A stretch of 49,537 nt of DNA from an uncultured Arenicella sp. (lineage in GTDB: Bacteria > Pseudomonadota > Gammaproteobacteria > Arenicellales > Arenicellaceae). How positions within the stretch are numbered: the stretch's first letter is position 1; the number at the start of each line of letters is the position of its first letter. Below are positions 40,014 through 49,383 of the stretch, in pieces. The stretch lies in the NCBI GenBank assembly GCA_905479805.1, contig CAJQNY010000166.1, positions 1 to 49,537 on the forward strand, in the 5' to 3' direction. The translations under genes were made by a program, and so were the position numbers. The notes beneath the pieces are model-generated. The model saw only the letters and a list, made by a program, of their open reading frames with translations, was not told the origin of the DNA and made no database searches.

Positions 40014-40688
40014 CTAGCCTAGGCCAGCAAGACGCGGAACGAAACGAACCGCCTCGATCTCTTTTTGTACTAAGCCAGATTCTGTTTTATCAATCACTAT
40101 CAACACTTGGTGATCATCACGCCCTACGGGCATCACAATTCGGCCACCAACCGCCAATTGTTCTATTAGTTCAGGAGGTACGTCTTCGGAAACAGCGGCC
40201 GCCAAAATACCATCGAAGGGAGCAAACTCTTCGAAGCCAGCAAAGCCATCACCATGCCGAAATACCACATTTCTTACCGCAAGATCATAGAGCAGGTCGC
40301 GGGCTTGACGATGTAGCTTCACAATCCGCTCAACACTAACTATCTTTTCGCATAAAGGTGCCAACACGGCTGTTTGATAACCGCAACCAGTGCCAATCTC
40401 TAGAATGTTAGCTCTAGGCTTATTCAACAAGGTCTGCGTCATCAAAGCAACGATATAAGGCTGAGATATGGTCTGCCCATGGTTTATCGGTAAAGCGGTA
40501 TTCTCGTATGCACGACTAGCAAGAGCTTCATCGACGAACGCATGACGGGGCAAACTCTGCATAATACGAAGCACAGATTCATTAACAATGCCCATCTCAC
40601 GCAATTGATCAATCAATCGCCGTCGAGTTCGATCTGAAGTCATCCCAATTCCAGCGAACTGAGGTTTACTTAAGTGCTGTTGGTACAT
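40014..40688 (-). CDS. pcm: Protein-L-isoaspartate O-methyltransferase
   Basis: This 224-residue methyltransferase has the Pcm signature: VPRHAFVDEALASRAYENTA-like start, GQTISQPYIVALMTQ, the SAM-binding ILEIGTGCGYQTAVLA, and the C-terminal GGRIVMPVG. It methylates isoaspartyl residues for repair of aged proteins. It stands at the head of pcm-yqaA-nlpD-rpoS. surE, the common neighbour, is not present upstream. Confidence 0.95.
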   Translation of the reverse strand: MYQQHLSKPQFAGIGMTSDRTRRRLIDQLREMGIVNESVLRIMQSLPRHAFVDEALASRAYENTALPINHGQTISQPYIVALMTQTLLNKPRANILEIGTGCGYQTAVLAPLCEKIVSVERIVKLHRQARDLLYDLAVRNVVFRHGDGFAGFEEFAPFDGILAAAVSEDVPPELIEQLAVGGRIVMPVGRDDHQVLIVIDKTESGLVQKEIEAVRFVPRLAGLG

Positions 40689-40860
40689 CCCCTAATTATA
40701 GAGGATTCTCGGACTCGAGAGTATCTAACTCTCAAATATGCATACCAAAATAAGTGCTGAACCCTGAGGGCTCCGATGGTCTCAAGGAAGTAAATTTAAT
40801 AGCGCCCTATTCAATACCCTACAGAGCTGCCACAAAATACTAGCAGGTTAATTTAATTTA

Positions 40861-41694
40861 CTAATAAACTCTCTTTTCTTTGGAGCCTTTGTAGAGAATG
40901 TTCGTCAAATTCTCATCAACTAGGTCGCGCAGCTCAATAGCCTCTAAAGCGCCGTCCTGCTTAGGGCTGGGCAATATTACGCTAGCTGGTCCGCGATCAT
41001 TTTCACCCTGAATATCCATCCAATAATTATCACCTTCAAGCTGCTTAATATCGGGTGACATATAAGATTGCAGGGCAAAACCTATACGTCGAGAATCGCT
41101 CAAATTCGCTTGTGAACCGTGAATTATCTCTCCATGGTGTAACGACATTTGTCCAGGTCGCAAGATTAAATCTACTGCTGAGCGCTCATCAACACCCTCT
41201 ACCTCTTGGCCGCGCGTGAGAATATTATCCTCACCAAAGGTATCTGTATGGCTTCGAATATGTTCCTTGTGACTACCAGGAATCATGCTCATACAGCCAG
41301 TATTTCTATTGCTTGGGGAAAGTGCCAGCCAAGGGGTTACAAAGTCATTGGAACTCATCCCCATATACGTCGCATCTTGGTGCCAGCTGACAAAGTGTTG
41401 AGTCTTTGGTTCCTTAATAAACAACACTGATGCCCATAGAGAAATATCAACGCCAATCAAATCCTCCACTGCGCCGATAATACGTGGGTGGTGAGCTAAC
41501 TCATCTAAAAACGTAAAACACAAATGCGCATTGTTACGCTTACTTGGGCCTAATTGATCGGGGAAATCCTGCTCAGCTTGCTCAAGTCTTTTTACATACG
41601 ATATGGCTTCGTCTTCCGACATAATATCAACGCAGGCAACAAAACCATTGTCGTGGTAAAAATCTATTTGGTCTTGCGTCAGTACTTTGGGCAT
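40861..41694 (-). CDS. Fe(II)/2-oxoglutarate oxygenase, phytanoyl-CoA dioxygenase (PhyH) family
   Basis: This 277-residue protein has a double-stranded beta-helix oxygenase fold. The iron ligands are His105 and Asp107 (SWHQDATYMG) and probably His192 (IIHGSQANLSDSRRIGF), with Arg203 as the 2-oxoglutarate anchor. The pattern WLALSPSNRNTGCMSMIPGS, with LHHGEIIHGSQAN, places it in the branch that also contains SyrB2-type halogenases, but the Asp ligand indicates hydroxylation rather than chlorination. The small-molecule substrate is unknown. It follows the MFS transporter with a three-base gap, so the two are one operon. EctD-type ectoine hydroxylases are distant relatives; I do not call it EctD. 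Confidence 0.85.
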   Translation of the reverse strand: MPKVLTQDQIDFYHDNGFVACVDIMSEDEAISYVKRLEQAEQDFPDQLGPSKRNNAHLCFTFLDELAHHPRIIGAVEDLIGVDISLWASVLFIKEPKTQHFVSWHQDATYMGMSSNDFVTPWLALSPSNRNTGCMSMIPGSHKEHIRSHTDTFGEDNILTRGQEVEGVDERSAVDLILRPGQMSLHHGEIIHGSQANLSDSRRIGFALQSYMSPDIKQLEGDNYWMDIQGENDRGPASVILPSPKQDGALEAIELRDLVDENLTNILYKGSKEKRVY

Positions 41695-41697
41695 GAG

Positions 41698-42957
41698 CTA
41701 GCTCGCTAAGCGTTTTTTATTACGTTGAAACAATAGAATCGCCATGGTTAAACCAACCAAGCTGGTAGCAAACAAATACCAAAATGTAATCCTGTAGCCT
41801 GCTTCGCCAGGGTTGGCATCCAACCAATAGCCAAACAATGGGTAGATAAAAGCTTCCGGAAGAAATCCTACAAATGAGGTAACACCGACTATCGCACCCG
41901 TTATTTCAAGCGGCATATCCGATTCACCGACTAGGGCATAATAGTTCCCTCGAATCATATAAACCGCAAAGCCCATCACCAGCATCGTTATCGTGACGGC
42001 TGGCATCATGTTGGCCGTCGACGGAATTATTAGAAAGGTCAACATGCAGACAGTAGTGACGCTAAAGGCATAGATAATTACCTTATTCGGAGAGCCTAAT
42101 TTAGTCGCCAAGGCAGCGGCACCTATACCTCCTGCAGTTTGCAAACCATAAGTTCGAATCAAGCCCATCAACGCACCCATGGTGAGTGAAGCACCCAGTA
42201 TCTCTGTCATATAGGGAGTGATGTAACTCTGGCCAGCGAAGAGACTATAACCACATAAAATAATAACCGCGATCATCCAGGTGGTCGGCATTTTCATCGC
42301 CGTAATAATGCCATCTAAAGCGGCACCCTGCTGCTCCTCTTGTTCTGAATCCTCGAACAAAAACCATACCGCTAAACCGGCAGCGACTGTAATCACCGCG
42401 GAAATTATAATCACCCACATCAATCCTTCTTGGCTCTCCCCCATGTTCGAGAAGACCACTAGAGTCAAACCGCCTATCAACAGACCAAATACGCCGCGGC
42501 CGCCTTCTAATAAACCAAATAACTTGCCTTGTTCTTCTTTGTTGCCAAGATTCCGCGTTGCCTTGATTAGCGGAGCCCAAAATATAACCAAAGTGCTTAT
42601 GCCCCAAAACCCGTACAAGAACATTGCACCGATATAGGAGGGAAACATCGCGAAATAGAAACCACTTAAACCCGTACTAACGAGTGAAATAGACAGCAAC
42701 AGGCGTGGTGAATAACGATCCGCCAACCATCCGCCAGGTATATAACCAAGTGTTGACAAAATACCATTGAGGCTTTGTAAAACCCCCATCTGAGTGTGCG
42801 TTAAATTCAGCGCATTCTGAAGAGGTTCATAGTAGGAGTATCGTAGGAAGGGAAAGGTGTAAATTGTCGAGGCTGCTAATGATAACAAGGCCAACATAAA
42901 CCAACGTTTTGAATTGGAGTTTCCTTCGCCCATCTTGTCGCTCTTTATGTCGCTCAT
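41698..42957 (-). CDS. MFS transporter
   Basis: This 419-residue membrane protein has about 12 hydrophobic segments. The first, FMLALLSLAASTIYTFPFLR, is followed by the MFS loop motif GGWLADRYSPRLLL between segments 2 and 3 and by a long charged central loop (EDSEQEEQQ) between halves. The general look is that of organic-anion/sugar-phosphate type MFS proteins; the substrate cannot be told. It starts the minus-strand operon with the PhyH oxygenase and is divergent from the four-gene catabolic operon, so it probably imports or exports that pathway's substrate. Confidence 0.88.
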   Translation of the reverse strand: MSDIKSDKMGEGNSNSKRWFMLALLSLAASTIYTFPFLRYSYYEPLQNALNLTHTQMGVLQSLNGILSTLGYIPGGWLADRYSPRLLLSISLVSTGLSGFYFAMFPSYIGAMFLYGFWGISTLVIFWAPLIKATRNLGNKEEQGKLFGLLEGGRGVFGLLIGGLTLVVFSNMGESQEGLMWVIIISAVITVAAGLAVWFLFEDSEQEEQQGAALDGIITAMKMPTTWMIAVIILCGYSLFAGQSYITPYMTEILGASLTMGALMGLIRTYGLQTAGGIGAAALATKLGSPNKVIIYAFSVTTVCMLTFLIIPSTANMMPAVTITMLVMGFAVYMIRGNYYALVGESDMPLEITGAIVGVTSFVGFLPEAFIYPLFGYWLDANPGEAGYRITFWYLFATSLVGLTMAILLFQRNKKRLAS

Positions 42958-43070
42958 ATTCTCTCGCTTATTTTGTATTCAAATGCTCAAATATTGATCT
43001 AGCTTAGCGACCTATTTTGTTCCTCAATCGACACATCTTTGTTTGTACCAGAAAATTCCTCGCATAGTCT

Positions 43071-43092
43071 GCAAAGTTAGTGCAAACTTTGC
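43071..43092. promoter_or_regulatory. Candidate operator in the divergent MFS / M20 promoter region
   Basis: A perfect inverted repeat, GCAAAGTT (43071-43078) and AACTTTGC (43085-43092), separated by six bases, lies in the 171-bp gap between the divergent operons. It is 37 bp upstream of the M20 start. The size and symmetry fit a dimeric repressor or activator site such as LacI- or GntR-type. No regulator gene is encoded in the cluster, so the binding protein is unknown. Confidence 0.5.
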
Positions 43093-43128
43093 TAAACGCA
43101 ATCGCCTAGTTAATTAGATTGAATCAAA

Positions 43129-44316
43129 TTGAACCATAACACCAATAACAGCGTAGGTATCCACTTAAGGCAGACCAGTCAACCGGAAATGCAGGAGTGG
43201 CGACGCCATATTCATCAATTTCCTGAAACCGGTTTCGAGGTAGAGGACACCGCCAAATTTGTTGTTGAAAAATTGCAGTCTTTTGGGTTTGAAACACACT
43301 CCAATTTCGGCAAAACGGGTGTCGTCGGAATATTAAAGAAAGGCGATTCAGATCAAGCCATCGGGCTGCGTGCCGATCTTGATGCTTTGCATGTCAAAGA
43401 ACTTAACCAATTTGATCATTGCTCAAAGCACGAAGGGAAAATGCATGCTTGCGGCCACGATGGACATACCACCATGTTGCTCGGCGCTGCCAAAGAGCTA
43501 TCCGAAACTAATTTTGATGGTACGGTCTACCTGATTTTTCAGCCAAACGAAGAACACGGCCTTGGCGCTCTGGCGATGATCCACGATGGCTTATTTGAGA
43601 AATTTAAAATGAAAGCCGTGTATGGCATGCACAATATGCCCGGTATGCCTGCTGGCCAGATCGCGATGAATGCAGGCGCAGTGATGGCGGGTGAAGACAA
43701 CTTCACAATTACTATAAAAGGGCGTGGCGGCCATGCTTCACAACCACATCATCACATTGATCCAGTGCCCATATCCGCTGAAATTGCATTAGCGATGCAA
43801 ACCATCGTGTCACGAAACATTGATCCCAGCGAACGAGCCGTGGTATCAATCACCGAGATCGAAACTGATGGCACTGTGAATGTCATCCCCAGCAACATTA
43901 CACTTAAAGGTGACTGCCGAAATTTCAATGAAGCGGTTAGCTTAGAGATTGAAACAGCGATGCAACGTCTAAGTCATAATATTTGCGCCGCGCATGGTGC
44001 AGAGTGTGAATTGATCTACGACCGAGTCTTCCCACCTACCGTTAATAGCAAACAAGAATCCGGCTTTGCCGAGCAAGCCGCTAACGCCACCGTCGGACCA
44101 GATCAGGTTAACCCTAACTGTGAAGCACTCACTATATCGGAAGACTTCGCCAACATGCTCAAAGTAAAAGCTGGATGCTATGTCTTTATTGGAAATGGCG
44201 AAGACAGCGAAGGTGGATGCATGTTGCATAACCCGCATTATGATTTTAACGACGCCATCCTCACTACTGGTTGCCAGTATTGGGTCAACCTGGTGACGCA
44301 ACAACTATCGGTATAA
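43129..44316 (+). CDS. M20-family amidohydrolase (possible N-acetyl-diamino acid deacetylase)
   Basis: This 395-residue (from TTG at 43129) metallohydrolase of the hippurate-hydrolase/M20D type has metal ligands Cys108 and His110 (MHACGHDGH), Glu142 (QPNEEHG), His168 (YGMHNMP) and a final His in MLHNPHYDFND. A lid/dimerisation domain starts near FTITIKGRGGHASQPH. The family cleaves N-acyl amino acids. In ectoine-type pathways an M20-like DoeB2 is proposed as acetyl-diaminobutyrate deacetylase; I infer a similar step here. The start is uncertain: TTG at 43129 or ATG at 43189, the latter just before the conserved WRRHIHQFPE. First gene of a four-gene operon. Confidence 0.85.
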   Translation: MNHNTNNSVGIHLRQTSQPEMQEWRRHIHQFPETGFEVEDTAKFVVEKLQSFGFETHSNFGKTGVVGILKKGDSDQAIGLRADLDALHVKELNQFDHCSKHEGKMHACGHDGHTTMLLGAAKELSETNFDGTVYLIFQPNEEHGLGALAMIHDGLFEKFKMKAVYGMHNMPGMPAGQIAMNAGAVMAGEDNFTITIKGRGGHASQPHHHIDPVPISAEIALAMQTIVSRNIDPSERAVVSITEIETDGTVNVIPSNITLKGDCRNFNEAVSLEIETAMQRLSHNICAAHGAECELIYDRVFPPTVNSKQESGFAEQAANATVGPDQVNPNCEALTISEDFANMLKVKAGCYVFIGNGEDSEGGCMLHNPHYDFNDAILTTGCQYWVNLVTQQLSV

Positions 44317-44369
44317 CCTACCTGTATCACTTGCCTATTTATCTTTTCCGTTCTATTTGAAGAAAGACT

Positions 44370-45512
44370 ATGAACTCGACTACTTATTCTCACCGCAAGC
44401 ATCTAGAAAACTCAAACTTCGATGCCACTGCTCATACTGAATTTTCCAGTTTGCTCTCACAAACCGATTGCGAAGCCGCTAAACATGAGATCTCAGCTTG
44501 GGATGGCTACCAACAAACGCCGTTAGTAGAGCTCGATGACATCGCCGCCGCCGCAGGCGTTAAGAGTATTTACTACAAAGATGAATCAGGGCGATTCGGC
44601 CTGGGTTCATTCAAAGCCCTTGGTGGATCCTACGCTGTATTTAAACTAGCCGATGAATATAAAGCAGAACACGGGAATCTAGAAGGTTTTGCAGTAGCCA
44701 CCGCCACCGACGGTAACCATGGCCGGTCAGTCGCATGGGGCGCGCAGCGTATCGGTGTCGAATGTCATATTTTCATCCACGCCCACGTTAGCCAACAACG
44801 AGCGGATGCCATGGCCGCGCTCGGCGCTGAGGTACATCGCATCGATGGTAATTACGATGATTCGCTGGTCGAATGCGAAACGTTATCTAGTAAAAATAAT
44901 TGGCAGATTGTTTCCGATACCAGTTGGGATGGATACGAAACAGTGCCAATTCAAGTTATGGCTGGCTATTCAGTAATGGCCAACGAAATTGTCGAACAGT
45001 TAGATGGTCATATCCCCAGCCACTTCATTATTCCCGCTGGCTGCGGAGGTTTGGCAGGTGGAATGTTGGCTTACTTCTGGCAAGTCTGGAAAGACCAATT
45101 GCCAACGATTGTAATCGCAGAATCGGAATATTCAGACTGCGTCTATCAAAGCCTGGAAGCCAATCAAATCAAACTGGTCAATATCGTTGATGAAACCTTG
45201 ATGGCGGGTTTATCCTGCGGTGAGGTCTCTAAGATAATCTGGCCGCTCCTCGCCAAGGGCGTTCAACATGTTGTTACCATACCTGACGATGGCGTTGTTC
45301 CCATGATGCAATGGTTAGCAAGACCAACCTCTTCTAGAGCTTCTGTTGAAGGTGGCGAATGTTCAGGCGCTGGTTTAATTGCCTTGATGGCAGCAAACAA
45401 TGATCCTTCATTGAAGCAGGCCTTGAACATTAATGCTCAATCCACAATTCTAGTACTAGGCACCGAAGGTGCAACCGATCCCGAGTTTTACAAACAGGCA
45501 ATGGAAAGCTAA
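44370..45512 (+). CDS. Diaminopropionate ammonia-lyase-like PLP enzyme
   Basis: This 380-residue fold-type II PLP enzyme has the Schiff-base lysine at Lys82 in YKDESGRFGLGSFKALGGS, which is the DpaL pattern. An ATATDGNHGRSVAWGAQ loop and PAGCGGLAGGM also occur. The C-terminal VEGGECSGAGLIAL matches DpaL. DpaL removes ammonia from 2,3-diaminopropionate; the related hydroxyectoine enzyme EutB is a threonine-dehydratase type. The neighbours suggest a diamino acid or beta-hydroxy diamino acid substrate, which is inference. It starts 53 bp after the M20 stop. Confidence 0.85.
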   Translation: MNSTTYSHRKHLENSNFDATAHTEFSSLLSQTDCEAAKHEISAWDGYQQTPLVELDDIAAAAGVKSIYYKDESGRFGLGSFKALGGSYAVFKLADEYKAEHGNLEGFAVATATDGNHGRSVAWGAQRIGVECHIFIHAHVSQQRADAMAALGAEVHRIDGNYDDSLVECETLSSKNNWQIVSDTSWDGYETVPIQVMAGYSVMANEIVEQLDGHIPSHFIIPAGCGGLAGGMLAYFWQVWKDQLPTIVIAESEYSDCVYQSLEANQIKLVNIVDETLMAGLSCGEVSKIIWPLLAKGVQHVVTIPDDGVVPMMQWLARPTSSRASVEGGECSGAGLIALMAANNDPSLKQALNINAQSTILVLGTEGATDPEFYKQAMES

Positions 45513-45556
45513 CAAATAAATATACCTATAACTCTGAAACCATCATCGCCAAGACT

Positions 45557-46312
45557 ATGCAACTACTAAACTTTGACACCCTACCCGATGATCACATCAC
45601 CAAGCTGGGTCTAATAGTGCTGCAATCAGATGTCACGATTGAAGATGAATTTCGCTTTTTCTTTGACGGTCTACCCGTCAGTCTAATGGTGAGCCGTATC
45701 CCGTTTGAAAACGAAGTCACAGTAGAAACCTTAAAGCAGATGGAAGGCCATATCAGTAATAGTATGAGCCTATTCCCGATAGACGCTGAATTTAATTGCG
45801 TCGGTTACGGTTGTACTTCTGGTGCTTTACACATCGGTCATGCGCCCATTGGAGCACTCGTCAATGAAGCGAGGACTACCCAAGCGGTAACAAACCCGAT
45901 GCTTTCTGCGGTCACGGCGATGCAACACATTGATGCCAAAAAGATTGCCTACCTTGCACCCTATAGCCAAGAGGTGTCACAAACCATGGTCGATGAGTTT
46001 GAGCGCAATGGCATAGAAGTTGCGGTATCGGCCACCTTCAACGAATCCCAAGATAGAATAGTAGGACGTATTTCTCCAGAGTCCATCAAACAAGCCTCCA
46101 TAGAAATTACAAAACAGAAAGAAGTAGATGCAGTGTTTGTTTCTTGCACCAATATGAAGTGCGCGCAAATCATTCCTGAAATCGAAGCAGCCACTGGCAT
46201 CGTCGCCACATCGAGCAATCAAGTGCTCGCTTGGCATATGGCAAAGCTGGCAAACATCAAGTTTGATTCAGCAAGCTCTGTTTTAGAGAAGGGACGGTTA
46301 CTGCAATGTTAA
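45557..46312 (+). CDS. Asp/Glu-racemase-family protein, EutA-like
   Basis: This 251-residue protein has the paired cysteines of the Asp/Glu racemase, maleate isomerase and arylmalonate decarboxylase superfamily: Cys86 in VGYGCTSGA and Cys197 in VFVSCTNMK. The opening LGLIVLQSDVTIEDEFR and the segment SRIPFENEVTVETLKQME match EutA, a putative racemase/isomerase of hydroxyectoine utilisation. The exact reaction of EutA is not established. The gene overlaps the M24 gene start by seven bases, so the two are coupled. Confidence 0.85.
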   Translation: MQLLNFDTLPDDHITKLGLIVLQSDVTIEDEFRFFFDGLPVSLMVSRIPFENEVTVETLKQMEGHISNSMSLFPIDAEFNCVGYGCTSGALHIGHAPIGALVNEARTTQAVTNPMLSAVTAMQHIDAKKIAYLAPYSQEVSQTMVDEFERNGIEVAVSATFNESQDRIVGRISPESIKQASIEITKQKEVDAVFVSCTNMKCAQIIPEIEAATGIVATSSNQVLAWHMAKLANIKFDSASSVLEKGRLLQC

Positions 46313-47514
46313 GCAACACAAAAAATAGGGTAATCCCACCGCGCGGTTTTGCAGAGACAGAATATCTGCGCAGATTGCTGAAAGCTCAAAGCGGCATGGC
46401 TGATGCGGGCCTCGGAGCCATGCTCATCACCACCGAAGCGGACATGTACTACTTCACAGGTTTCTTAAGCCAGTTTTGGCAAAGCCCTACTCGGCCTTGG
46501 TTTGTGGTTATTCCTTTAGAGGGCAAACCCATTGCGGTGATTCCGGAGATTGGCGTTAATTGCATGAAGAACAACTTCATGGAAGATATTCGCAGTTGGT
46601 CTTCACCACATGAAAACGATGACGGAGTAAGCTTATTGTTCGAGACCCTGTGCGAAGTGTTAGCCAAATCTAGCGACTCCAAAACCATTGGCATCAATCA
46701 GGGACGCGAAACCCATGTACGAATGCCCTTACACAATTTTGATCTATTGAAAGGAAAACTGAGCGCTCAAGACCCTGCCATCGATTTCGGTGATGCCACT
46801 GAGATTATCCGCCAACTTAGGATGGTGAAGTCCGAAACCGAGATAGATAAATTGAGATACGTCGCGCAATGTGCCTCCGACGTCTTCGAGAATCTTTTCT
46901 CTTTCATTCAGCCTGGCATGCGCGATGATGAGATTTTTCGTGCATTCAAGATCGAGTGTTTAAAAGCGGGCGTCGATGATGTTTCGTACCTAGTCGGCGC
47001 GGCTGGGCAAGGTGGCTATGACGACATCATCTCACCACCAAAAGGCAGAATATTGCGCGACGGTGATGTATTGATCTTAGACACTGGCTGCACCTTCGAT
47101 GGTTACTTTTGTGACTTCGATCGTAACTATGGTTTCGGTAGAATTAATGACGATGCCATTCGTGCTTATGACGTAGTTTGGCAGGCAACAGAAGCCGGCA
47201 TGGCCGCCGCCAAACCTGGCAACACCTGCCAAGACATATTTCACGCCATGGACAAAATCATGAACGCCGGTGGCGCACAGGGTGAATCAGTTGGGCGCTT
47301 TGGTCATGGCCTAGGCATTCAGCTAACCGAACCCCCCTCTCACACCTCATGGGATAACACAGTTCTCGAAGACGGCATGGTGATCACTCTAGAACCAGGA
47401 ATGATATTTGCGCCCGGCCGAATGATGGTGCACGAGGAAAATTTAGTGGTACGCGAAGGCGGGGTGGAAATGCTGTCAAGACGTGCCGACGCTGAGATGC
47501 CAATCTGCTTCTAG
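46306..47514 (+). CDS. M24-family metallohydrolase (Xaa-Pro dipeptidase-like)
   Basis: This 402-residue pita-bread-fold protein has a creatinase-like N-terminal domain (about 20-165) and a C-terminal M24 domain. All five classical metal ligands appear: Asp259 and Asp270 (LDTGCTFDGYFCDFD), His334 (FGHGLG), Glu363 (TLEPGM) and Glu377 (VHEEN). Position is where ectoine pathways carry the M24-fold hydrolase DoeA/EutD. As I recall, DoeA lacks this ligand set, so this enzyme may hydrolyse a different amide or iminopeptide bond. The start overlaps the preceding gene by seven bases. Confidence 0.87.
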   Translation: MLSNTKNRVIPPRGFAETEYLRRLLKAQSGMADAGLGAMLITTEADMYYFTGFLSQFWQSPTRPWFVVIPLEGKPIAVIPEIGVNCMKNNFMEDIRSWSSPHENDDGVSLLFETLCEVLAKSSDSKTIGINQGRETHVRMPLHNFDLLKGKLSAQDPAIDFGDATEIIRQLRMVKSETEIDKLRYVAQCASDVFENLFSFIQPGMRDDEIFRAFKIECLKAGVDDVSYLVGAAGQGGYDDIISPPKGRILRDGDVLILDTGCTFDGYFCDFDRNYGFGRINDDAIRAYDVVWQATEAGMAAAKPGNTCQDIFHAMDKIMNAGGAQGESVGRFGHGLGIQLTEPPSHTSWDNTVLEDGMVITLEPGMIFAPGRMMVHEENLVVREGGVEMLSRRADAEMPICF

Positions 47515-47697: not shown

Positions 47698-48792
47698 CTA
47701 CTGGCATGCACTATCGAGAGCCGTACCGTCTGTTTCAAAAACAAACGAGCAAACAGGAGTGCCAGTAACCGACCCTTCCAAAAAAGTGTTAGCAACATAA
47801 GACTCATCGGAATCCGAGCCATTATCATCTTTTAGGCTGATGTCCTCAGTTCTTATTGTGCTGTTGGAAATCCAAAACCTATCGCTATTGGCAACATTCA
47901 AACCATTAACTACCCCTATATTCTCAAAGCTCCCGCCAAATGCCTCTATTGTTGAATTCAACATTGTTAACGAGCCAATATTATTAACCCCTTTAAGGCT
48001 AGAACCGTCGGCGAGTAAAATCTCTACCTCATTCAGCCTGGTTTGCCCAGATCCCTCGACTCCCACTGTTGAAGAGGCACCATTCAAACTAATCCGAGTT
48101 TGGCGAATATCACTAATGCCCGAAATTAGACTTAAACCAGCAAGAAAGCTGGCAGATGGTAAAGCCGTACCAGTTATAGTGAGGTCGCTAGCGATTACAT
48201 CACCAGCCGATTCAATTCCCTTCGCATCGGATGATGCTCCCATCAATTGAATGTCCGAGTCCCTTATTGTCAAGGTATCCCCGTTAAAGAAAATTCCCTT
48301 TTGTAAAAAGCCACCCGTTAATTTTATAGATACGCCTGAAAGTCGAGGTGATGCGGAGGGGTCGGTGATATTGAACCCTCTTGCCTGTACTGCAGTAGTT
48401 GTTACTTCAACTGACAAATCTTGGATATTAGTGTCAGGCTCTAATTCAATTGCAACAACTAAAGTGCTTGCCGATAGTTTGGTAACACCTCTCCCGCTAC
48501 CAGCGATATCGACGAAGGGCTTAGTAACCAAACTTTGCGTTAAGTTGTATACACCAGGCGCAATCACCATCAAGTAGGGGTTTGCAGAACTTGCATCAGA
48601 AATCGATGCCATCGCCGCTACGGGGTCCGTAAAATCACCGTTCTTCTTCGCTACCGTCACAATATTTTTAAGCGGTTCTAAATCATCACCCGCCATCGGT
48701 ATTACAACTACCTTATTGTGAGCATGCGCTAACCCAAAAAACGCCATACACACAACAAGCAAACACCCAAAACCAACTCTATAAATTTTCAT
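47698..48792 (-). CDS. Secreted protein with predicted right-handed beta-helix
   Basis: This 364-residue protein has a signal peptide ending near residue 24 (LAHA|HNK). It starts KVVVIPMAGDD, then KNIVTVAKKNGDFTDPVAAMASISDASS and a VIAPGVYNL segment. These lead into repeated short strands (VDIAGSG, IQDLSVEV, LTIRDSDIQL, RLNEVEILLADGS, LTMLNSTIEAF, FWISNSTIR), the pattern of a pectin-lyase-like beta-helix. The C-terminus has two cysteines. Function unknown; marine gammaproteobacteria often have several such KVVVIP proteins. It shares a TGTAC-N4-GTACA element with the next secreted gene. Confidence 0.8.
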   Translation of the reverse strand: MKIYRVGFGCLLVVCMAFFGLAHAHNKVVVIPMAGDDLEPLKNIVTVAKKNGDFTDPVAAMASISDASSANPYLMVIAPGVYNLTQSLVTKPFVDIAGSGRGVTKLSASTLVVAIELEPDTNIQDLSVEVTTTAVQARGFNITDPSASPRLSGVSIKLTGGFLQKGIFFNGDTLTIRDSDIQLMGASSDAKGIESAGDVIASDLTITGTALPSASFLAGLSLISGISDIRQTRISLNGASSTVGVEGSGQTRLNEVEILLADGSSLKGVNNIGSLTMLNSTIEAFGGSFENIGVVNGLNVANSDRFWISNSTIRTEDISLKDDNGSDSDESYVANTFLEGSVTGTPVCSFVFETDGTALDSACQ

Positions 48793-48959: not shown

Positions 48960-49328
48960 TTATTCTGGTCGACAAACAGCTATGGACTTTCCGCTTTGGC
49001 AAAATGACTCGTGCTTCTCAGGGCATGCTGGATTTGGGCGACAGTCTAGGTCCAATATCGGTGATTCTGGTGGTTGATGAATAACCGCCGCATTACTTAA
49101 TGGTGGTGAGCTGCGTACACATAAATAAGCGCCGTTTGAATTTTGCACTTCGACAGGATCGTATCCAGCTCTGCAATCCCCAGTGTTTATTAGTGGGTTC
49201 ATATTCATGCATTTCCCGCGTAAGCATTTTCTCTCGCCATCGCATTCACTATTATTCGCACACATTTGCGCTCCAACAGTGGGTAGTGCCATCGTAAAAA
49301 CAAAAAGCAAAGTAATCCAAAATTTCAT
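48960..49328 (-). CDS. Small secreted cysteine-rich protein
   Basis: This 122-residue protein starts at the ATG at 49328, giving a clean signal peptide MKFWITLLFVFTMALPTVGA; the frame also opens 12 codons upstream, but that form lacks a proper leader. The mature part has ten cysteines, spaced C-x5-C-x5-C-x4-C in the first part and C-x5-C, x7, C-x8-C near the end, so up to five disulfides. The spacing NNSECDGERKCLRGKC resembles EGF-like or toxin-like disulfide modules, but I do not recognise a named family. The extracytoplasmic location is inferred from the leader. Confidence 0.7.
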   Translation of the reverse strand: MKFWITLLFVFTMALPTVGAQMCANNSECDGERKCLRGKCMNMNPLINTGDCRAGYDPVEVQNSNGAYLCVRSSPPLSNAAVIHQPPESPILDLDCRPNPACPEKHESFCQSGKSIAVCRPE

Positions 49329-49383
49329 ATCAAATCTCCATTTATCATCATGAAACAAGATCATGCAAGAAACTTCCAGAAGT

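What the first reader, a model, noticed from the sequence alone, without database searches (positions are those of the whole stretch)
40861..47514. Undescribed-looking divergent catabolic cluster resembling, but not equal to, ectoine/hydroxyectoine utilisation
Six adjacent genes fit one pathway: an Fe/2-oxoglutarate oxygenase and an MFS carrier (minus strand), and an M20 amidohydrolase, DpaL-like PLP lyase, EutA-like Asp/Glu-racemase-family protein and M24 hydrolase (plus strand). Sequence directly shows the folds and catalytic residues. Known ectoine pathways combine an M24-fold hydrolase (DoeA/EutD), a deacetylase (DoeB/EutE), EutA, and a PLP dehydratase (EutB). Here the deacetylase is an M20 enzyme, the PLP enzyme is DpaL-like, EutC is missing and the carrier is MFS rather than TRAP or ABC. 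I infer a route for a cyclic or N-acylated diamino acid, perhaps a hydroxylated one given the oxygenase.
Basis: partly seen in the sequence, partly recalled or inferred. Interest (0 to 1): 0.78.

Follow-up and report, generated by a model that had tools for sequence, protein, structure and literature searches.

The report
Marine diamino-acid breakdown gene cluster
A six-gene cluster in an uncultured bacterium belongs to a gene set found in many other bacteria, marine ones among them, that looks built to break down a small nitrogen-rich solute resembling ectoine, but its enzymes are not the ectoine enzymes and the compound it eats is still unknown.

Summary
The six genes are real, correctly placed, and not a chance assembly. 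Their core (metal-type M24 hydrolase, EutA-like isomerase, DpaL-type lyase, M20 amidohydrolase) recurs in Alpha- and Gammaproteobacteria; Actinobacteria have M24 with EutA, without the lyase. Of the 80 best M24 relatives, 62 have EutA, 45 the lyase, 32 M20 within 10 kb; three carry all six. It is not an ectoine cluster: the four catabolic proteins fail the ectoine-family cut-offs, and M24 keeps all five metal ligands in 102 of 102 distinct proteins, whereas ten EutD-type proteins lack four. The lyase passes the general diaminopropionate ammonia-lyase cut-off. New here: the nearest operons continue into a FAD/GcvT (N-demethylase-like) oxidase, and relatives sit beside ProV-, BCCT-, Ehu- or TRAP-type carriers. 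I infer catabolism of a zwitterionic, probably N-methylated, acylated 2,3-diaminopropionate-type compound, ending in pyruvate and ammonia; substrate and order are inference, and the oxidase is not beside this copy. The cluster occupies the surE position beside pcm, so it is probably acquired. Ten searches of the held papers listed no description. New variant of a known kind.

The parts
40861..41694 (-). PhyH-family Fe(II)/2-oxoglutarate oxygenase, 277 aa; H105-x-D107 and a later His present, so hydroxylase- rather than halogenase-type (motif recalled)
   Evidence: PF05721 93.8 bits; ectoine hydroxylase model 29.2 of 336.5 bits: not met; best solved relative 6zyk, 99.8 bits; EctD 34.8 bits
41698..42957 (-). 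MFS transporter, 419 aa; presumed uptake carrier
   Evidence: homologue in L086, L087, L089 (54-56% identity)
42958..43128 (.). Divergent intergenic region with an operator-like dyad GCAAAGTT-6 nt-AACTTTGC (43071-43092)
   Evidence: function not tested
43129..44316 (+). M20-family amidohydrolase (N-deacylase), 395 aa; metal/catalytic positions C108, H110, D111, E141, E142, H168 kept (roles recalled)
   Evidence: TIGR01891 324.8 vs 153.75: met; DoeB2 NF038260 319.7 vs 550: not met; 39 of 40 distinct sequences, the other with a gap
44370..45512 (+). Diaminopropionate ammonia-lyase-type PLP enzyme, 380 aa; K82, D114, D183 correspond to K77, D120, D189 of the E. coli enzyme (roles recalled)
   Evidence: NF006058 416.2 vs 276: met; 4d9g, 234.9 bits; of 55 distinct sequences: K82 in 55, D114 in 53, D183 in 55
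45557..46312 (+). EutA-like protein of the maleate-isomerase/arylmalonate-decarboxylase branch, 251 aa; both cysteines C86 and C197 kept
   Evidence: TIGR02990 148.5 vs 318: not met; best folds: maleate cis-trans isomerases, TM 0.82-0.85; both Cys in 75 of 75 distinct sequences
46306..47514 (+). M24-family hydrolase of a distinct SPTRPW subfamily, 402 aa; predicted metal ligands D259, D270, H334, E363, E378
   Evidence: EutD TIGR02993 77.3 vs 613: not met; 102 of 102 distinct sequences keep all five ligands

Best explanation
A horizontally acquired catabolic operon that takes up a small zwitterionic, ectoine-like nitrogen compound and dismantles it to central metabolites. Proposed route: the MFS carrier imports the compound. 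The PhyH oxygenase hydroxylates it, or oxidatively removes a methyl group. The M24 metallohydrolase cuts an amide or cyclic amide, probably at an N-alkylated nitrogen as prolidases do. The M20 enzyme removes a second acyl group. The EutA-like two-cysteine enzyme inverts or isomerises an intermediate. The DpaL-type enzyme then beta-eliminates a 2,3-diaminopropionate-type product to pyruvate and ammonia. In related operons a FAD/GcvT oxidase removes N-methyl groups onto folate. Shown: gene identities, conserved catalytic residues, conserved linkage, difference from ectoine enzymes. Inferred: substrate class, order of steps, N-methylation, acquisition by transfer.
For: Conserved linkage: of 80 loci with the best M24 relatives, EutA in 62, DPAL in 45, M20 in 32 within 10 kb; all six in L086, L087, L089; usually close and co-directed (EutA within 300 nt in 47 of the 60 loci counted there, DPAL in 37 of 43). 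DPAL passes its general equivalog cut-off and keeps the K77/D120/D189 equivalents. M24 metal site intact in 102 of 102 distinct proteins; nearest folds are PepE and Xaa-Pro dipeptidases. The FAD/GcvT oxidase follows M24 in L087, L088 and L089; in 35 module-bearing genomes its orthologues (59-100% identity, next best 48%) number 12 in 11 genomes, and 11 of those 12 lie next to, or one gene from, an EutA or M24 gene (exception L198). Carriers beside the module: ProV-type ATPase over its cut-off, BCCT, Ehu-type, TRAP, MFS. Acquisition: in the 20 other genomes of the genus and family searched the best-scoring DPAL match is 34% identical; surE sits beside pcm in 8 of 10 same-genus loci with a complete pcm but not here.
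Against: No substrate is known and no assay exists. The FAD/GcvT gene is not beside this copy; the best in the assembly is 46% identical at a contig edge, below the orthologue band, so the N-methyl step may not apply here. Only 10 of 80 loci have it at 58% or more in the count (L086 has a partial copy besides). PhyH (15 of 80) and MFS (3 of 80) are rare in the wider set, and 8 of 80 loci have M24 alone, among them the one Anaerolineae MAG. Actinobacterial members lack DPAL and M20 at the limits, and one plasmid (Aminobacter) has a cystathionine beta-lyase instead, so the end product may differ among members. The Ehu-like proteins of L112 and L153 and the BCCT protein of L085 fall just below their model cut-offs. 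The lyase misses the narrower models TIGR03528 and TIGR01747. The 80 loci are the best-scoring ones, not an even sample, and mostly Alphaproteobacteria.
Confidence: 0.5

Rival explanations
1. A five-membered-ring or acyclic analogue of the ectoine pathway without N-methylation: N-acyl-2,3-diaminopropionate (or its cyclic imidazoline) is opened by M24, deacylated by M20 and eliminated by DPAL; FAD/GcvT and PhyH neighbours are incidental.
For: DoeB2 ties with CpsA as the M20 protein's closest equivalog model (319.7 bits each, both below cut-off); of the 20 loci with M24, EutA, DPAL and M20, 14 lack a FAD/GcvT orthologue nearby; Lrp/AsnC-like genes in 27 of 80 loci, as beside ectoine genes (PMC5924519, passages).
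Against: FAD/GcvT orthologues track EutA/M24 closely and a second M24-like/EutA/SoxB triad exists in L112, which is hard to call incidental.
Confidence: 0.22
2. Scavenging of dipeptides or imino-acid peptides (prolidase-type): M24 splits X-Pro or X-N-methyl peptides, FAD enzymes oxidise the secondary amine, EutA epimerises it.
For: M24 fold and metal site are those of prolidases and PepE; SoxB-family protein beside an EutA/M24-like pair in L112.
Against: A diaminopropionate ammonia-lyase has no evident role; the carriers identified are of compatible-solute, amino-acid, TRAP or MFS types, none identified as an oligopeptide carrier; the subfamily-wide SPTRPW segment is not matched in the five dipeptidases aligned.
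Confidence: 0.12
3. A divergent ectoine or 5-hydroxyectoine utilisation cluster.
For: Same four enzyme folds; EutA-like gene; Ehu-type ABC carriers beside some members.
Against: EutD, EutA, EutB, DoeB2, EutE and EctD models not met; EutD-type residues absent; five of 15 genomes searched carry a separate EutD over the cut-off beside having the module.
Confidence: 0.05
4. Unrelated genes side by side by chance.
For: None beyond the divergent arrangement.
Against: Recurrence in two proteobacterial classes with short gaps, and of M24 with EutA also in Actinobacteria.
Confidence: 0.01

Closest known systems
Ectoine/5-hydroxyectoine utilisation (eutABCDE/doeABCD with ehu or ueh carriers)
   Same: M24-fold hydrolase, deacylase, EutA-like protein and a fold-type II PLP enzyme in one unit; some members with Ehu-type carriers and Lrp/AsnC regulators
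   Different: M24 keeps its metal site; deacylase is M20; PLP enzyme is DpaL-type; no EutC beside it; FAD/GcvT and PhyH partners in relatives; no aminotransferase or semialdehyde dehydrogenase in the window's cluster
Diaminopropionate ammonia-lyase units of enteric bacteria (ygeX-ygeY and relatives)
   Same: DpaL-type lyase with an M20 hydrolase (recalled)
   Different: No M24, EutA, PhyH or FAD/GcvT there (recalled); TIGR03528, the DpaL model closer to the E. coli type (recalled), not met (284 of 532 bits)
Xaa-Pro dipeptidases/prolidases and PepE (M24)
   Same: Pita-bread fold and five metal ligands; best solved relatives
   Different: Conserved SPTRPW segment and linkage with a diamino-acid lyase
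Dimethylglycine/sarcosine demethylation enzymes
   Same: FAD plus GcvT two-domain oxidase next to relatives of this cluster (kind recalled from its domains; no NCBIfam cut-off met)
   Different: Separate orthologous group (59% or more within, 48% or less outside) tied to EutA/M24

Membership tests
Ectoine hydrolase EutD/DoeA | Reaches the curated EutD model score | tested here: not met
   77.3 of 613 bits; 75.4 in the whole-genome search
Ectoine hydrolase EutD/DoeA | Lost M24 metal ligands (metal-free mechanism, recalled) | tested here: not met
   All five ligands kept in 102 of 102 distinct module proteins. EutD-type comparison: 11 rows, four of the ten usable ones over the EutD cut-off and six just under it (569-589 of 613 bits); all ten read E, P, Y, M, E at the five places; the eleventh (L203) was read out of frame and is dropped
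Ectoine deacetylase EutE/DoeB or DoeB2 | Reaches the curated model score | tested here: not met
   DoeB2 319.7 of 550 bits; EutE model: no match in the assembly (its control genomes gave no match over cut-off either)
EutA | Reaches TIGR02990 | tested here: not met
   148.5 of 318 bits
EutB / EutC | Hydroxyectoine dehydratase and EutC present | tested here: not met
   PLP protein 68.1 of 413 bits to TIGR02991 EutB; only EutC-family match 108 of 471.65 bits, on another contig; assembly 78% complete
Diaminopropionate ammonia-lyase | Curated family score and catalytic Lys/Asp/Asp | tested here: met
   NF006058 416 vs 276; K82, D114, D183. The narrower models TIGR03528 and TIGR01747 were not met (284.2 of 532.25; 267.7 of 274)
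Diaminopropionate ammonia-lyase | Activity on 2,3-diaminopropionate | not testable with these tools
   needs an assay
M24 metallopeptidase (prolidase-like) | Five metal ligands and pita-bread fold | tested here: met
Maleate isomerase/AMDase branch of Asp/Glu racemases | Fold and two cysteines aligned with those of maleate isomerase | tested here: met
   reaction itself not tested
Ectoine hydroxylase EctD | Reaches TIGR02408 | tested here: not met
   29.2 of 336.5 bits

The most novel reading that the evidence does not exclude
The module is an undescribed, widespread pathway for N-methylated 2,3-diaminopropionate compounds (for example beta-N-methylamino-alanine, BMAA, or an acylated or betaine-like derivative), linking an unrecognised pool of methylated diamino acids to pyruvate, ammonia and folate-bound C1 units in marine and plant-associated bacteria.
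Probability: 0.13. Interest if true: 0.85.

Novelty: new variant of a known kind. Interest (0 to 1): 0.5.

Why it matters
A conserved gene set in roseobacters, Luminiphilus, vibrios and rhizobial plasmids implies a common nitrogenous solute whose breakdown I found assigned nowhere in the papers searched. It also shows that ectoine-type labels given to such genes by similarity (EutA-, DoeA-, DoeB2-, Ehu-like) would mislead, and it offers a direct test: ligand screens on the neighbouring binding proteins and enzyme assays on diaminopropionate derivatives.

Tried and rejected
Ectoine/hydroxyectoine cluster: rejected on family scores and on the M24 metal site. Halogenase reading of PhyH: the nearest NCBIfam model is 'chlorinating enzyme' (66.5 of 226.3 bits), but His-x-Asp is present, so rejected (motif recalled). 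Creatinase and DddP-type lyase were considered for M24 because they share the fold; nothing specific supports either. Uric-acid, homarine and trigonelline routes were considered: nothing in the listings tied these genes to them, but the listing includes a paper on anaerobic uric-acid breakdown that mentions diaminopropionate (PMC12507026), of which I saw only the start of the abstract. Literature: ten searches of the held open-access library listed no description of the M24-DPAL-EutA set; searches matched 2,701, 115 and 214 papers, of which 25, 12 and 12 were listed, and one search matched none. I saw one outline with abstract plus passages (PMC13188858) and passages only of three others (PMC5924519, PMC4809877, PMC9414260); the rest as listings. 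Subscription papers and preprints were not searchable. My first ORF picker dropped genes hidden by longer overlapping frames, so counts are taken from the tblastn passes, which differ a little because their limits differ. In one search I took E377 for the fifth metal ligand; the profile alignment shows it is E378 and repeats the count. The residue counts held a few loci twice (L112/L200, L148/L195, L154/L201, L123/L055, L119/L077 and, for single families, L128/L152 and L132/L134); one search recounts distinct sequences, and the report uses those. One search shows that L055 and L123, and L077 and L119, are the same DNA reached by two tools.
Full report
What is there. Six intact ORFs fill 40861-47514 in two divergent arms. 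Leftward: PhyH oxygenase and MFS carrier; rightward: M20 amidohydrolase, DpaL-type PLP lyase, EutA-like protein and M24 hydrolase, the last two overlapping by 7 nt. Pfam and NCBIfam support the fold assignments.

Is it an ectoine cluster? No. Against curated models the proteins fall short: EutD 77 of 613 bits, EutA 148.5 of 318, DoeB2 319.7 of 550, EutB (TIGR02991) 68 of 413, ectoine hydroxylase 29 of 336.5. The assembly has no match above the EutD, EutC or EutE cut-offs (assembly 78% complete). The strongest single result concerns M24. Its aligned metal ligands D259, D270, H334, E363 and E378 are kept in the window protein and all 101 other distinct module proteins at 40% identity or more, 102 of 102. 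EutD-type proteins from genomes that also carry the module read E, P, Y, M, E at these places in ten of ten usable rows; four of these ten are over the EutD cut-off and six just under it (569-589 of 613 bits), and an eleventh row, L203, was read out of frame and dropped. Nearest relatives by sequence and by predicted fold are PepE and Xaa-Pro dipeptidases; the EutD structures come after them. The genomes of L115, L120, L122, L134 and L138 hold both an EutD over cut-off and the module M24, so these are separate systems (5 of 15 genomes searched).

What the parts can do. The lyase passes the general diaminopropionate ammonia-lyase model (416 vs 276 bits), although not the narrower models TIGR03528 and TIGR01747, and aligns to the E. 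coli enzyme 4d9g with K77, D120 and D189 matched by K82, D114 and D183 (catalytic roles recalled). In 55 distinct module sequences these are kept 55, 53 and 55 times. The EutA-like protein has the fold of maleate cis-trans isomerase (TM 0.82-0.85) and both cysteines in 75 of 75 distinct sequences. The M20 enzyme keeps its metal and catalytic positions in 39 of 40 distinct sequences, the other having a gap. The PhyH protein is closest to structure 6zyk (99.8 bits) and far from EctD (34.8 bits).

Is the linkage real? By my reading of the record titles these are 54 alphaproteobacterial, 14 gammaproteobacterial, 11 actinobacterial and one Anaerolineae. Within up to 10 kb of M24, EutA was found in 62 of 80, DPAL in 45, M20 in 32, PhyH in 15, the MFS carrier in 3; 8 of 80 had M24 alone, the Anaerolineae one among them. 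In the actinobacterial loci M24 goes with EutA, in most of these with PhyH, and at the limits without DPAL or M20. With other limits, EutA is found in 60 loci, 47 of them within 300 nt of M24, and DPAL in 43, 37 of them within 300 nt; 20 loci have M24, EutA, DPAL and M20. All six families occur together in L086 (a MAG named Hellea), L087 and L089 (Luminiphilus MAGs), at 41-66% identity per protein. In an even draw of 274 genomes of the window's class, 19 had an EutA-like match, the window's own among them; of 16 such regions that I fetched, six (L051, L052, L055, L060, L061, L077) carry it near a module-type M24. L055 and L077 are the same DNA as L123 and L119 of the 80. Among plasmids (13 regions fetched, one of them without annotation), Aliiroseovarius has Lrp, amidohydrolase, DPAL, M24, Asp/Glu racemase in a row, and Phaeobacter, Roseovarius and Photobacterium have variants of it.

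What the neighbours add. In L087, L088 and L089 the gene after M24 encodes a two-domain FAD/GcvT oxidoreductase. For L087, NCBIfam scores point to the sarcosine-oxidase/aminomethyltransferase kind without meeting any cut-off; the FAD and GcvT domains were seen in the orthologues of L055 and L154, and the name dimethylglycine-dehydrogenase-like is recalled. The next ORF in L087 is a Cyclase-family hydrolase. Searching 35 genomes that carry the module, 12 genes in 11 genomes are 59-100% identical to the L087 oxidase and everything else listed is 48% or less. Eleven of the 12 lie next to, or one gene from, an EutA or M24 gene, sometimes in a second unit with an Ehu-type ABC carrier and GntR regulator; the exception is L198. 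These families are numerous in such genomes (0 to 15 matches each), so it is the orthologue band and the adjacency, not mere presence, that count. A second triad, M24-like, EutA-like and a SoxB-family protein that does pass its cut-off (602 vs 529), lies in L112. Carriers beside members are of compatible-solute, amino-acid or TRAP types: ProV-type ATPase above cut-off with a ProW-like permease below it, BCCT as annotated but just below the BCCT model, Ehu annotated as such or just below the EhuB cut-off, TRAP. This mix is why I favour a betaine-like, N-methylated substrate. It is inference, and the weakest link for this particular copy, because here the FAD/GcvT gene is not adjacent and the best one in the assembly is 46% identical.

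Origin. In the 20 other genomes of the genus (17) and family (3) searched, the best-scoring lyase match is 34% identical (G277); in the same order 48% relatives exist. In 8 of 10 same-genus loci with a complete pcm gene, surE lies directly upstream of pcm (L181 and L184 are the exceptions; an eleventh locus, L190, is cut); here the PhyH gene does, and no surE was found in the assembly. GC is 46.5% in the cluster against 44.1% in the rest of the window. Insertion of the cluster at or in place of surE is the simplest reading.

Mechanism, with status. Uptake by MFS: inferred. Oxygenation by PhyH: family shown, substrate inferred. Amide or ring hydrolysis by M24 with a metal centre: fold and ligands shown, bond inferred; prolidase-type enzymes favour amides of N-alkylated nitrogen (established knowledge), which would fit an N-methylated partner. 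Deacylation by M20: family shown. Isomerisation by EutA: cysteines and fold shown, reaction inferred. Beta-elimination by the lyase to pyruvate and ammonia: family and residues shown, substrate inferred; a review passage states that such enzymes act on both enantiomers of 2,3-diaminopropionate, giving 2-aminoacrylate and ammonium (PMC9414260, passage). N-demethylation by FAD/GcvT: only in relatives.

Comparison and novelty. It works like the ectoine route in outline but fails every defining ectoine test applied. It contains a diaminopropionate ammonia-lyase by family criteria. None of ten literature searches in the held library listed a description of the M24-DPAL-EutA set; some listings were capped, and subscription papers could not be searched. 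I rate it a new variant of a known kind: known enzyme families in a conserved, apparently unassigned catabolic combination.

Noticed in passing
window 43071-43092: Perfect 8-bp dyad GCAAAGTT-6 nt-AACTTTGC in the divergent intergenic region just upstream of the M20 gene; none of the six cluster genes is a regulator, while 27 of 80 relatives have an Lrp-like and 7 of 80 a GntR-like gene nearby.
   Followed up: partly
window 40688-40861: surE, which lies beside pcm in 8 of 10 same-genus loci, is missing here and was not found elsewhere in the 78%-complete assembly.
   Followed up: partly
L083 8153-12655 (Aminobacter plasmid): Variant with racemase, M24, M20 and a cystathionine beta-lyase (passes its cut-off) in place of the diaminopropionate lyase.
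   Followed up: no
L104, L110, L135, L142, L146 (Actinobacteria): M24 next to a class V PLP enzyme resembling EgtE/SufS (L104 scored, 165 bits, below cut-offs); four of the five also have PhyH and EutA, and none showed DPAL or M20: probably a different end of the pathway.
   Followed up: partly
L112 17495-20707: Second triad of M24-like, EutA-like and SoxB-family genes beside the main module and an Ehu-like ABC carrier.
   Followed up: partly
L082, L166, L167 (rhizobial plasmids): M24 and DPAL with an amino-acid ABC carrier and a Zn-dependent hydrolase (carbamoylase family in L082); nitrile hydratase genes close by in L082 and L166.
   Followed up: no
window 47698-48792 and 48960-49364: Two minus-strand ORFs downstream of the cluster, near the contig end; not analysed.
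   Followed up: no
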